A program made the position numbers and the translations under genes. From assembly GCF_036248255.1 (NCBI RefSeq), contig NZ_CP109178.1, forward strand, positions 4,960,001 through 5,024,000: DNA of 64,000 bases, in the 5' to 3' direction. The notes under the pieces were generated by a model that was given only the letters and a program-made list of their open reading frames with translations, had not been told where the DNA came from and did not search any database. Position 1 is the first letter of the stretch. Every line of letters begins with the position of its first letter. This document shows, piece by piece, positions 5,418-9,208 of the stretch. Source of the DNA: Streptomyces sp. NBC_01717. GTDB lineage: Bacteria > Actinomycetota > Actinomycetes > Streptomycetales > Streptomycetaceae.

Positions 5418-6902
5418 TCAGGCCCCCGTCGAGTACGGGAGCAGGCCGGCGTCCGTCCTCTCCCAGGACGCCCGCAGCTCGGCCAGCAGCTTCGGTTCGG
5501 CCTGTGCCCGGTCCGCCTGTTCCCGCTGGTCATGGGCGAGCTGGAACAGCTGGTCGGTCCCGCTCCTGCCCCGGTAGTACTTCCAGCCGCCGCGTCGCAG
5601 CGCCCGCTCCCCGCGTACCCGCCAGAACAGATCCCGCTCCTTCGGCTCCTCGCCCCTCAGCAGGTATCCGGCGAGGCTGATGCCGTCCAGCGGGTACGCG
5701 GGGTCCGGCCGCGCGCCGCCGAGCTCCAGCAGCGTCGCGGTCCAGTCCGGCGAGAACACCGGCAGACCGCTCACCTGGTGCGGGTCGATCCTGGCCGGCC
5801 AGCGCAGCACTGCCGGGACCCGGATCCCGCCCTCCTGCAGCGAGGACTTGTTGCCGGAGAGCGGCCACTGGTACGAGAACCGCTCGCCGCCGTTGTCGCT
5901 GGCGAAGAAGACCAGGGTGTCCTCCGCCTGGCCGGACCGCTCCAGTGCCTTCAGCACCTCGCCGACCGAGCGGTCCAGGTCCTCCACCATCTGTTTGTAC
6001 TTCGCGACCGAGCCGCCGTCCGCGTGGAACAGCCCCGCCAGGCCCCCGGCCCTGATCCTGCGGACGATCTCGGCGCTCTCGGCCGTGTCGCCCTCCGCGA
6101 TCCACGGCCAGTGCGGGGTGGTGAAGTTGAGATTGAGCAGCCACGGCTTGTCGTGGTCGCGCCGTACGTACTCGCTCGCGCGCTCGGTCAGGATCCGCGT
6201 GTAGTAGCGGAGGTCCTTGTACTCGGCGTCGCCCTCGTACAGGTCGTACTCGCCGGCGAGGCCGAGCTTGGAGTAGTACTCCAGCGCCCCGCCGAAGTTC
6301 CCGAAGAACTCGTCCCAGCCGGACTTGGTGGGGCTGTAGTCCGGCAGATAGCCGCAGTGCCACTTGCCGATCAGCGCGGTGGCGTACCCGACTCCGCGCA
6401 GCAGAGAGGCGAGCGTCGGGTGCGTGGGTTCGAGGCCCACCGACCGGTCCGCGATGGGCTCGGCGAGACCGCCCTTCGTACGGCCCGGGTAGCGCCCGGT
6501 GTAGAGGCTGAAACGGGTGGGGGAGCAGGTCGCGGAGCCGGAGTAGGCGTCCGTGAACCGCACGCCCTGGCGGCCGAGACGGTCCAGGTTCGGGGTGCGG
6601 ATGTGCGGGGAGCCGTACGAGGAGAGGTCGGCCCAGCCGAGGTCGTCGCCGAGGATGAAGAGGATGTTGGGCCGCCGGGAGTGCTTGCCGCGGGCCGCCC
6701 GGAAGGGACGCTCACGGGACGCCTCGTCGGGAGCGGCCGCAGCCGCCGAGACAGGCGTGGCGGCGGAGGCGGGCGTGGCGACGGCCGGGATTCCGACCGC
6801 GGCTGTTGCGGCGGTCGCGCCGACGGCGGTCCCGAAGGCACGCCGGGTCAGCGATATCGAATCCGCACTTTCGTTCGAACTACTTGGGTCGCGAGAAGGC
6901 AT
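5418..6902 (-). CDS. Tat-exported type I sulfatase
   Basis: This is a 494-residue alkaline-phosphatase-superfamily sulfatase that should release sulfate from an organic sulfate ester outside the cell. LTRRAFGTA near residue 20 followed by an Ala-rich hydrophobic stretch is a Tat signal. NILFILGDDLGW carries the metal-binding Asp pair. CSPTR at 126-130 is the cysteine-type formylglycine motif, followed by SLYTGRYP. FASDNGG and GNKSSLQEGG fit later active-site elements. The substrate cannot be read from sequence. Formylglycine formation needs a separate generating enzyme, not in this window. A Cys-rich-ended leader peptide lies about 200 bases upstream on the same strand and may control it. Confidence 0.92.
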   Translation of the reverse strand: MPSRDPSSSNESADSISLTRRAFGTAVGATAATAAVGIPAVATPASAATPVSAAAAAPDEASRERPFRAARGKHSRRPNILFILGDDLGWADLSSYGSPHIRTPNLDRLGRQGVRFTDAYSGSATCSPTRFSLYTGRYPGRTKGGLAEPIADRSVGLEPTHPTLASLLRGVGYATALIGKWHCGYLPDYSPTKSGWDEFFGNFGGALEYYSKLGLAGEYDLYEGDAEYKDLRYYTRILTERASEYVRRDHDKPWLLNLNFTTPHWPWIAEGDTAESAEIVRRIRAGGLAGLFHADGGSVAKYKQMVEDLDRSVGEVLKALERSGQAEDTLVFFASDNGGERFSYQWPLSGNKSSLQEGGIRVPAVLRWPARIDPHQVSGLPVFSPDWTATLLELGGARPDPAYPLDGISLAGYLLRGEEPKERDLFWRVRGERALRRGGWKYYRGRSGTDQLFQLAHDQREQADRAQAEPKLLAELRASWERTDAGLLPYSTGA

Positions 6903-7103
6903 GACTGCTCCAGGACAGGGCTCGGCCGCGCACGGCGGGGCGGAGGGAGGCCTAACCCGACCCGTCAGGCGTCACCTGCGGACATGCGGACGCGCACACG
7001 GGTACGAGTGAGGGAAAGCAGGAACGGAAGCGGAGGACGCCGACGCGAGGGCGGGCTCGGCGCCGTCAGCAGGCGCGCGTCGACGCGGTGTGCGTCGCGG
7101 AAA

Positions 7104-7196
7104 TCAGGCGCAGCGACAGATGGCGCTCGCGACACGTCCCAGATCGACGTGGCGGCGCTCCACGAGCGTGACCGAACGGTCACCGAGAGGCTGCAT
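7104..7196 (-). CDS. Putative cis-acting leader peptide (Cys codons near the end)
   Basis: A 30-codon reading frame starts at ATG 7196 and ends at TGA 7104. Its last 20 residues read LVERRHVDLGRVASAICRCA, matching the LVxRRHVDLxR...SAxCR pattern of the short putative leader peptides that recur ahead of sulfur-related genes in Streptomyces. Two Cys codons, TGT and TGC, lie in the last four sense codons. It points at the sulfatase 200 bases downstream. By analogy with cysteine-responsive leader ORFs in actinobacteria, ribosome stalling at the Cys codons could set sulfatase expression. A 6-bp hairpin sits just upstream of the ATG and no strong ribosome site is visible. The role is inferred. Confidence 0.75.
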   Translation of the reverse strand: MQPLGDRSVTLVERRHVDLGRVASAICRCA

Positions 7197-7644
7197 GGGG
7201 CAGGAGCCTGCCAAGGAGGCATGCGCCTGTCAACGCCGGTCTCGCACTCCGGACGTCGGCCGACGCGCCGCGGGGCAGCGAGATCCGAAACCGGGACCGG
7301 TGCGATCCACGAACCGAGGTGTGGTGGCGGGGAAGCCGCATACCGCCCCGTCGGCCCCTCGTCCGGTGTGAGGCTCACCACGAAACGAGCGTTCGGGCAG
7401 CGCCTTCACCGGTCCGCCGACCGGCTCGCCGAGCGCGCGCCCGGCGCCGCGGCCCCGTGACATCCGCATGGCCGGAACTGGTCGGTAACCCGCCGCCAGA
7501 CCGGGCCTCAACCGCCCCCGGCCCCTCCCGCGCTGCCTCCGCAGCCCGCTCGCAGCCGAAAACCATCACTGTCCGTGATCTCTCGATCCACCCCGGGAAC
7601 GGCGTTCCGACGCCCTTCCCAGTGCTCCGGCGAGGTGTCCCCAA

Positions 7645-7674
7645 TTCGGACCCGTGGTCGATCTCGCCTACACT
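7645..7674 (+). promoter_or_regulatory. Candidate purF promoter
   Basis: TACACT at 7669-7674 is a good -10 box, with a weak TTCGGA at 7645-7650 eighteen bases upstream. The -10 box ends seven bases before the purF GTG, so the transcript would start at or next to the start codon. Confidence 0.45.
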
Positions 7675-7681
7675 CGGTGGC

Positions 7682-9208
7682 GTGCCCCGTGGTGATGGAC
7701 GACTCAACCACGACCTGCTCCCCGGAGAGAAAGGCCCCCAGGACGCTTGTGGCGTCTTCGGTGTCTGGGCTCCGGGCGAAGAGGTCGCCAAGCTCACCTA
7801 TTTCGGACTGTATGCCCTGCAGCACCGTGGACAGGAGTCCGCGGGCATTGCAGTGAGCAACGGGTCCCAGATCCTGGTCTTCAAGGACATGGGACTGGTC
7901 TCGCAGGTCTTCGACGAAACGTCTCTGGGATCTCTCCAGGGCCATATCGCGGTCGGTCATGCCCGCTACTCCACCACCGGTGCCTCGGTGTGGGAGAACG
8001 CGCAGCCGACGTTCCGTGCGACCGCGCACGGCTCGATCGCCCTGGGTCACAACGGCAACCTGGTCAATACGGCCCAGCTCGCCGAGATGGTCGCCGACCT
8101 TCCCCGCAAGGACGGCCGCGCCACCCAGGTCGCCGCGACGAACGACACCGACCTGGTGACCGCTCTGCTCGCCGGCCAGACCGACGACGACGGCAAGCCG
8201 CTCACCATCGAGGAGGCCGCCGCCAAGGTGCTTCCCGATGTGAAGGGCGCCTTCTCGCTCGTCTTCATGGACGAGCACACCCTCTACGCCGCCCGCGACC
8301 CGCAGGGCATCCGCCCGCTGGTCCTCGGCCGGCTGGAGCGCGGCTGGGTGGTCGCATCGGAATCCGCTGCCCTCGACATCTGCGGCGCCAGCTTCGTACG
8401 TGAGATCGAGCCGGGCGAGCTCGTCGCCATCGACGAGAACGGCCTGCGCACTTCACGGTTCGCGGAAGCGAAGCCCAAGGGCTGCGTCTTCGAGTACGTC
8501 TACCTGGCCCGCCCCGACACCGACATCGCCGGGCGGAACGTGTACCTCTCCCGCGTGGAGATGGGCCGCAAGCTGGCCGCCGAGGCCCCGGTCGAGGCCG
8601 ATCTGGTCATAGCGACTCCGGAGTCCGGCACCCCCGCCGCCATCGGTTACGCGGAGGCCAGTGGCATCCCGTTCGGTGCCGGTCTGGTCAAGAACGCGTA
8701 CGTCGGCCGGACCTTCATCCAGCCGTCCCAGACCATTCGCCAGCTGGGTATCCGCCTCAAGCTGAACCCGCTCAAGGAAGTCATCAAGGGCAAGCGTCTG
8801 GTGGTCGTCGACGACTCGATCGTCCGCGGCAACACCCAGCGCGCACTGGTCCGGATGCTCCGTGAGGCCGGCGCCGCCGAGATCCACATCCGGATCTCCT
8901 CCCCGCCGGTGAAGTGGCCCTGCTTCTTCGGTATCGACTTCGCGACCCGCGCGGAGCTGATCGCCAACGGCATGTCGGTCGACGAGATCTGCACGTCGAT
9001 GGGTGCCGACTCGCTCGCGTACATCTCGCTCGACGCGATGGTCGAGGCGACGACGATCGCCAAGCCGAACCTGTGCCGCGCCTGCTTCGACGGCGAGTAC
9101 CCGATGGAGCTCCCGGACCCGGAGCTGCTCGGCAAGCAGCTGCTGGAGACCGAGCTGGCGGCAGGCCCCGCGGCCACCGCCGCGGCCGACGCGCTGCGTC
9201 GTCCGTGA
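7682..9208 (+). CDS. purF: Amidophosphoribosyltransferase PurF
   Basis: PurF makes 5-phosphoribosylamine from PRPP and glutamine, the first committed step of purine synthesis. The 508-residue protein has a 22-residue propeptide and then CGVFG, so Cys23 becomes the Ntn nucleophile after processing. The PRPP loop VVVDDSIVRG lies in the second half. Cysteines in GCVFEY, WPCFFG and LCRACFDG fit the ligands of the [4Fe-4S] cluster of the Bacillus-type enzyme. The frame extends back to 7319, but GTG 7682 gives the normal N-terminus. It may be leaderless. purM follows after 60 bases. Confidence 0.96.
   Translation: MPRGDGRLNHDLLPGEKGPQDACGVFGVWAPGEEVAKLTYFGLYALQHRGQESAGIAVSNGSQILVFKDMGLVSQVFDETSLGSLQGHIAVGHARYSTTGASVWENAQPTFRATAHGSIALGHNGNLVNTAQLAEMVADLPRKDGRATQVAATNDTDLVTALLAGQTDDDGKPLTIEEAAAKVLPDVKGAFSLVFMDEHTLYAARDPQGIRPLVLGRLERGWVVASESAALDICGASFVREIEPGELVAIDENGLRTSRFAEAKPKGCVFEYVYLARPDTDIAGRNVYLSRVEMGRKLAAEAPVEADLVIATPESGTPAAIGYAEASGIPFGAGLVKNAYVGRTFIQPSQTIRQLGIRLKLNPLKEVIKGKRLVVVDDSIVRGNTQRALVRMLREAGAAEIHIRISSPPVKWPCFFGIDFATRAELIANGMSVDEICTSMGADSLAYISLDAMVEATTIAKPNLCRACFDGEYPMELPDPELLGKQLLETELAAGPAATAAADALRRP

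What the first reader, a model, noticed from the sequence alone, without database searches (positions are those of the whole stretch)
6903..7196. Cysteine-ended leader peptide ahead of an exported sulfatase
A 30-codon ORF ends in LVERRHVDLGRVASAICRCA, the motif of short Streptomyces leader peptides, with two Cys codons just before the stop, and points at a sulfatase 200 bases away. Cysteine-sensing attenuation of an extracellular sulfatase would tie sulfate scavenging to sulfur supply. Seen: ORF, motif, orientation, sulfatase motif. Known: related leader peptides precede sulfur genes. Inferred: control by Cys-tRNA.
Basis: partly seen in the sequence, partly recalled or inferred. Interest (0 to 1): 0.7.

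Follow-up and report, generated by a model that had tools for sequence, protein, structure and literature searches.

The report
Cysteine-sensing leader peptide before sulfatase
A 30-codon peptide gene in a Streptomyces-type chromosome, kept by evolution just ahead of an exported sulfatase, looks like a switch that makes the enzyme when cysteine is short; the kind of switch is known, but its use on a sulfatase and its strict use of one rare cysteine codon are worth a test.

Summary
Window 7104-7196 (-) encodes MQPLGDRSVTLVERRHVDLGRVASAICRCA*, 201 nt before a sulfatase start. It scores 38.9 bits (cut-off 27) against NCBIfam NF042934 'putative leader peptide': a new member of a known kind. The peptide is under selection: 39 of 49 distinct Streptomyces-type sulfatase loci carry it (34 of 34 on the window's side of the tree); the core is 86% identical, flanking DNA 30-34%, pN/pS 0.17. 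A -35 and a -10 box stand just before the ATG in 39 of 39, so the mRNA probably starts at the AUG. Six of 13 other leaders in this genome precede clear sulfur genes, four plausible ones, three unclear. Unexpectedly, the conserved Cys codon is the rare UGU in 39 of 39 sulfatase leaders and 63 of 64 others read; other Cys codons in those 64 are 42 UGC, 7 UGU. No intrinsic terminator and no general Shine-Dalgarno sequestration was found; spacers are C-rich and G-poor. Likeliest: a ribosome pauses at UGU when Cys-tRNA is short and blocks Rho termination. Cysteine response and Rho are inferred, not shown.

The parts
7228..7233 (-). -35 box TTGACA
   Evidence: TTGAC 36-38 nt before the ATG in 39 of 39 distinct sulfatase leaders
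7205..7210 (-). -10 box CAGGCT, 17 nt after the -35 and 8 nt before the ATG; predicts a transcript start at or 1-2 nt before the AUG
   Evidence: nAnnnT at spacing 17 or 18 in 39 of 39; start site itself not measured
7104..7196 (-). leader peptide ORF, 30 codons plus stop, MQPLGDRSVTLVERRHVDLGRVASAICRCA*
   Evidence: NF042934 38.9 bits, cut-off 27; pN/pS 0.17 in the 34 main-clade rows
7116..7118 (-). conserved Cys codon UGU (codon 27), proposed pause site
   Evidence: TGT in 39 of 39 sulfatase leaders and 63 of 64 other leaders
6903..7103 (-). 201-nt spacer between leader stop and sulfatase start; richest C-over-G 78 nt begins 26 nt after the stop
6908..6911 (-). Shine-Dalgarno-like GGAG of the sulfatase
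   Evidence: most orthologs have GGAG or a similar motif here
5418..6902 (-). exported type I sulfatase, 494 aa, CSPTR site
   Evidence: PF00884 192.7 bits; C126-R130 invariant in 9 of 9 aligned relatives

Best explanation
The ORF is a cysteine-responsive leader peptide (cis-acting attenuator) of the sulfatase. Transcription starts at or within a base or two of the AUG, so the peptide is read without a Shine-Dalgarno. With enough Cys-tRNA the ribosome reads through the UGU codon, stops three codons later and leaves; the bare, C-rich, G-poor spacer then lets Rho end transcription before the sulfatase. When Cys-tRNA is short the ribosome pauses at UGU next to the stop codon, covers the start of the spacer and lets RNA polymerase go on. 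The exported sulfatase is then made when sulfur is needed, along with other leader-controlled sulfur genes. Shown by comparison: conserved peptide, promoter position, UGU, spacer composition, gene company. Inferred: the pausing, Cys-tRNA as the signal (about 0.8) and Rho as the effector (about 0.45).
For: Family match above cut-off. Leader in 34 of 34 rows on the window's side of the sulfatase tree. Core 86.1% identical against 29.9% upstream and 33.4% after the stop; pN/pS 0.17. -35 and -10 boxes at fixed distance in 39 of 39. UGU at the conserved Cys in 39 of 39, against 0 of 77 Cys codons in the sulfatase genes and 84 of 765 in gene calls of 40 loci; 63 of 64 other leaders also UGU. Only anticodon GCA found for Cys among the tRNAs. 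Sibling leaders precede TauD, sulfite/nitrite reductase, cysteine synthase, rhodanese, cysteine dioxygenase, SsuC-like permease. Spacer C/G 1.74 against 1.04 in controls, p 9e-14; Rho present.
Against: No expression, start-site or cysteine-response data. Ten of 15 sister-clade sulfatases have no leader, so the enzyme can do without it. Rho itself is untested; the spacers are slightly more folded than shuffles (mean z -1.0, 10 of 39 under -2), the gene calls behind the C/G control are crude, one spacer is only 57 nt, and a ribosome at UGU would cover only the first bases of the spacer.
Confidence: 0.7

Rival explanations
1. Translational attenuation: mRNA folding hides the sulfatase Shine-Dalgarno, and a ribosome paused on the leader opens it, as I recall for the mycobacterial polycysteine short ORFs. 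The Cys sensing is the same, the effector differs.
For: Passages in PMC13236596 and PMC9031893 name translation attenuation by Cys short ORFs in M. smegmatis. In 4 of 33 loci the modelled opening of the SD exceeded all 8 shuffles. Local hairpins near the SD appear in some groups.
Against: Over 33 of 39 loci the modelled opening is no larger than in shuffles (p 0.43), and 4 of 33 beyond all 8 shuffles is about what chance gives (1 in 9). SD opening energy also does not differ from shuffles (p 0.71). Spacers run from 57 to 441 nt and are not alignable over the family.
Confidence: 0.25
2. Nascent-peptide arrest: the conserved chain R..DL.R.....C in the exit tunnel, and not the codon alone, stalls the ribosome, and cysteine (free or on tRNA) is the ligand, in the manner of TnaC.
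For: Residues other than Cys are strongly conserved (pN/pS 0.17); Arg four before Asp in 64 of 64 other leaders, a position that the counting pattern did not require (the D, R and C of the pattern are fixed by it). Classical attenuators, as I recall, conserve mainly the sensing codons.
Against: No stall data; the profile search itself favours conserved residues. A simple codon-speed mechanism explains UGU without a special chain.
Confidence: 0.25
3. The leader is real but the sulfatase has its own promoter in the spacer, so the leader hardly affects it.
For: Spacers are long and variable (57-441 nt). Ten sister-clade sulfatases have no leader.
Against: Same-orientation pairing kept in 34 of 34 main-clade rows. 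No conserved block in the spacer. The consensus promoter scan found none there, but it also missed the leader promoter and so says little.
Confidence: 0.08
4. The ORF makes a small protein with a job of its own, not a regulator of the sulfatase.
For: The peptide sequence itself is conserved.
Against: The same motif precedes many unrelated sulfur genes in one genome, and the third base of one Cys codon is fixed, which a protein function would not need.
Confidence: 0.05

Closest known systems
NCBIfam NF042934.1 cis_reg_atten, 'putative leader peptide'
   Same: Motif LVxRRHVDLxRVxSxxC near the C-terminus, short ORF ahead of a gene; 38.9 bits over the cut-off of 27
   Different: Nothing in the peptide sets it apart. 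The client, an exported sulfatase, and the invariant UGU are what I add; whether the family record names sulfatases I did not see
Mycobacterial polycysteine leaderless short ORFs (NF042936 Ms4527A, NF042933 Ms5788A; Canestrari 2020, not held, known from citations and recall)
   Same: Leaderless short ORF with Cys codons near the stop ahead of sulfur genes; weak profile similarity (28.1 and 22.3 bits)
   Different: Below both cut-offs of 45; one conserved Cys, not a run; SD sequestration not supported here
Cys leaders without terminators in Mycobacterium, Propionibacterium and Bifidobacterium (PMC1262725, passages)
   Same: Cys leader, no terminator, pyrimidine motifs and Rho proposed
   Different: There a run of Cys codons near the stop; that paper's passages name no Streptomyces cys leader
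E. coli tnaC attenuator
   Same: Proposed logic only: a ribosome held at the end of the leader masks the Rho-loading region (named as precedent in PMC1262725)
   Different: No sequence relation; tnaC senses free tryptophan, here shortage of charged Cys-tRNA is proposed

Membership tests
NF042934 putative leader peptide | profile score over the curated cut-off | tested here: met
   38.9 bits against 27
NF042934 putative leader peptide | short ORF, same strand, upstream of its client gene, conserved there | tested here: met
   39 of 49 distinct Streptomyces-type sulfatase loci
NF042934 putative leader peptide | regulates the client in cis | not testable with these tools
   no expression data
Mycobacterial Ms4527A and Ms5788A leader families | profile score over cut-off 45 | tested here: not met
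   28.1 and 22.3 bits
Polycysteine leaderless attenuator (mycobacteria) | run of consecutive Cys codons | tested here: not met
   C-R-C in the window, one conserved Cys in the set
Polycysteine leaderless attenuator (mycobacteria) | leaderless transcript | tested here: inconclusive
   -35 and -10 boxes at leaderless distance in 39 of 39; start site not measured
Polycysteine leaderless attenuator (mycobacteria) | stalled ribosome frees a sequestered ribosome-binding site | tested here: inconclusive
   no excess over shuffles, p 0.43, 33 of 39 loci; a folding model only
Classical terminator/antiterminator attenuator | GC hairpin followed by a U run before the gene | tested here: not met
   none in the window; 4 of 39 spacers have one or more, 5 sites against 10.5 expected
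Rho-dependent leader attenuator (tnaC-like) | C-rich, G-poor untranslated stretch after the leader | tested here: met
   C over G in 39 of 39 spacers; median 1.74 against 1.04 in 65 controls
Rho-dependent leader attenuator (tnaC-like) | termination depends on Rho | not testable with these tools
   Rho RNA-binding domain present at two loci of the genome
Type I sulfatase (PF00884) | domain match and CxPxR formylglycine site | tested here: met
   192.7 bits; CSPTR invariant in 9 of 9

The most novel reading that the evidence does not exclude
The actinobacterial leader family is a cysteine-sensing arrest peptide whose pause needs the wobble-read codon UGU at one fixed site together with a conserved nascent chain, and which gates Rho rather than a hairpin. 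This genome would then hold about a dozen such switches for sulfur supply, with a secreted, polysaccharide-type sulfatase as an outward-facing member.
Probability: 0.25. Interest if true: 0.72.

Novelty: new member of a known kind. Interest (0 to 1): 0.5.

Why it matters
If true, an exported sulfatase is under the same kind of cysteine switch as the cell's own sulfur enzymes, so scavenging of sulfate esters would follow internal need for sulfur. The site-specific UGU rule (63 of 64 non-sulfatase leaders read, including 26 of 26 loci from 22 genera outside the window's genus) is simple and testable: it predicts that one synonymous base change, UGU to UGC, would blunt the switch. It would also help to explain how attenuation works in actinobacteria that lack clear terminators.

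Tried and rejected
Rfam search of 6700-7800: one sub-threshold match to a viral microRNA family at 7708-7791, outside the element, taken as chance. Folding of leader plus spacer in the window: no better than shuffles (z 0.66). Intrinsic terminator: rejected. SD sequestration as a general mechanism: not supported. A hairpin common to the family in the spacer: not found; group alignments gave only local hairpins. TTG start at 7214 (36-aa version): rejected because it lies upstream of the -10 box. Mycobacterial Cys-leader families: below cut-off. Papers: in the ten searches no listed title or abstract start describes a Cys leader before a sulfatase or a fixed UGU; only open-licence papers are held and figures are not. 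Canestrari 2020 is not held and is used from recall and from citations.

Full report
What is there. On the minus strand an ORF of 30 codons runs from ATG at 7196 to the stop at 7106-7104: MQPLGDRSVTLVERRHVDLGRVASAICRCA. It points at a 494-aa sulfatase (6902-5418) that starts 201 nt further on. The sulfatase matches PF00884 (192.7 bits) and has the CxPxR site; its nearest solved relatives by sequence are type I sulfatases, several of them named carrageenan or N-acetylgalactosamine-6-sulfate sulfatases. The genome has two loci over the cut-off of PF03781, the family of formylglycine-generating enzymes. Export is inferred from a TRRAFG-type signal seen by eye. An amidophosphoribosyltransferase-like gene (purF, named from recall of its sequence, not from a call) starts divergently at 7682.

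Known kind. The peptide matches NCBIfam NF042934 'putative leader peptide' at 38.9 bits (cut-off 27) and falls below the cut-offs of two mycobacterial Cys-leader families (28.1 and 22.3 bits against 45). The kind was therefore already described. In passages I read that leaderless Cys-rich short ORFs precede sulfur genes in mycobacteria and are taken to sense cysteine (PMC4633059, PMC9094748, PMC9031893, PMC13236596), and that cys leaders without terminators occur in Mycobacterium, Propionibacterium and Bifidobacterium, with Rho as a possibility (PMC1262725). The key experimental paper (Canestrari 2020) was not held.

Conservation. The sulfatase is patchy: 11 of 61 genomes searched, the window's own included, had a match at E 1e-100 or better, all in the genus. 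Ten of these loci, the window, and the 80 loci kept by a scan of genome contigs make 91 loci. A leader HMM found the leader within 1500 nt upstream in 41 of 91, at E 4.8e-9 or better; the next hit had E 1.3. Four of the 14 HMM rows are sulfatase leaders. Two rows (L029, L035) repeat L016 and L018 and were dropped: 39 leaders among 49 distinct Streptomyces-type sulfatases (one of them, L034, is labelled Microtetraspora), and 0 of 40 more distant relatives on the coding strand. On the sulfatase tree the window's side has the leader in 34 of 34 rows; a sister clade has another leader type (DLCRQSxAxC) in 5 of 15 and none in 10 of 15 (L087 sits on a very long, unsure branch). Streptomyces clavuligerus plasmid pCLA1 (L024) has the leader and a 78% identical sulfatase 300 bases on; it is not in these counts.

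Selection on the peptide. In the 34 main-clade rows the 17-codon core is 86.1% identical, against 29.9% in the DNA from -120 to -46, 43.6% in the promoter and 33.4% in the 30 nt after the stop. Codon positions 1, 2 and 3 are 93.7, 93.6 and 71.0% identical; pN/pS is 0.17, against 0.30 in the sulfatase (150 random pairs of 32 rows; L067 and L087 left out) and 3.35 and 2.50 in the other two frames.

Promoter. TTGAC stands 36-38 nt before the ATG in 39 of 39, with nAnnnT 17 or 18 nt after the -35 box in 39 of 39 (one search had failed to parse L054). Streptomyces lividans promoters show -35 nTGACn and -10 TAnnnT, and 17% of its transcripts are leaderless (PMC8079986, passages). The mRNA therefore probably begins at the leader AUG; this is inferred. 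The consensus scan found no promoter here and is blind to this type.

The UGU rule. The conserved Cys codon is TGT in 39 of 39 sulfatase leaders. In the sulfatase genes of the same loci Cys is TGC in 77 of 77; in crude gene calls TGT is 84 of 765 in 40 loci and 20 of 119 in the window. I then read other leaders: 12 of 13 in the window's genome, 23 of 23 from 15 other genomes of the genus (28 loci were handed out, five sulfatase leaders dropped; few gene families, so not independent), and 28 of 28 from a class-wide draw, 26 of them from 22 genera outside the genus (the draws listed more matches whose letters were not read; five loci cut by contig ends were checked). The other Cys codons of these 64 leaders are 42 TGC and 7 TGT (Fisher p 2e-22, not corrected for relatedness). 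In the 39 sulfatase leaders the other Cys codons are 28 TGC and 9 TGT. The one exception, L116, is a weak match (E 0.02). In the 64 other leaders the neighbouring codons vary, so the constraint is on this codon and not on a longer DNA motif. Of 68 tRNA matches two are tRNA-Cys, both with anticodon GCA; one match at 4959456-4959527 was not called by ARAGORN and reads by eye as Gly. UGU would thus be read by G:U wobble. A slowly read codon at the sensing site is the simplest reason for the rule.

Company. The 13 other leader candidates in this genome precede clear sulfur genes in six cases (TauD, sulfite/nitrite reductase, SsuC-like permease, cysteine synthase, rhodanese, cysteine dioxygenase), plausible ones in four (luciferase-like monooxygenase, flavin reductase, a family-3 solute-binding protein, a methanethiol-oxidase-like protein behind the weak L116), and unclear ones in three (a ROK regulator, a dicarboxylate-type symporter, and L114 with no recognised neighbour). 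Of 16 genomes of the genus, 16 had leaders at E 1e-4 or better, 3 to 13 each.

How it works. Three effectors were tested. Intrinsic terminators: 5 sites in 39 spacers against 10.5 expected, in 4 of 39 loci. SD sequestration: over 33 of 39 loci the modelled opening of the SD by a stalled ribosome is no larger than in shuffles (p 0.43); 4 of 33 exceed all 8 shuffles, about what chance gives. Rho: 39 of 39 spacers have more C than G, with median C/G 1.74 against 1.04 in 65 control regions upstream of other gene calls (p 9e-14) and pyrimidine share 0.65 against 0.51; the 100 nt after the other leaders are also C-rich (13 of 13, 23 of 23, 27 of 28). Against Rho: spacers are a little more folded than shuffles (mean z -1.0), the control rests on crude gene calls, and a ribosome paused at UGU covers only the first bases of the spacer. 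I commit to Cys-tRNA-dependent pausing at UGU with Rho as the likelier effector; both are inferred.

Verdict. A known kind of switch on a client that I did not find described, with one unexpected rule. It stands as a new member of a known kind. The UGU rule and the conserved chain leave open that the family is a true arrest peptide.

Noticed in passing
G000:C1:3340298-3340522 (L225) and 8683596-8683793 (L226): Two loci of the window's genome carry a Rho RNA-binding domain over the cut-off (99.8 and 54.1 bits), so there may be a second Rho-like protein.
   Followed up: no
L243 (G000:C1:5807058-5807129) and L232 (G000:C1:7483643-7483713): Two tRNA-Cys genes, both anticodon GCA; one lies in a Val-Val-Val-Cys-Gly cluster, the other alone.
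   Followed up: partly
window 7104-7196 and its orthologs: Val and Ser codons 4 and 8 after the conserved His: Beyond UGU, some synonymous sites of the sulfatase leaders are fixed: GTC in 23 of 23 Val and AGC in 38 of 38 Ser rows. Unexplained; not seen in the other leaders.
   Followed up: partly
L022, L045, L047, L054, L079: A sister sulfatase clade carries a different leader type (DLCRQSxAxC), patchily, in 5 of 15 rows, as if the leader had been gained or lost several times.
   Followed up: partly
L063 (Actinomadura chibensis), reverse strand within 1500 nt upstream of the sulfatase: A strong leader match (E 7e-8) that points away from the sulfatase, perhaps ahead of a divergent gene.
   Followed up: no
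L005 and L009 (own genome): Leaders ahead of a ROK-family regulator and a dicarboxylate-type symporter, unexpected clients that may deserve a sulfur role.
   Followed up: no
PMC8079986, Table 4, passage: The S. lividans peptide called metL, before metNIQ, ends CMCRRMCAF with three Cys codons; it may sense cysteine rather than methionine.
   Followed up: no
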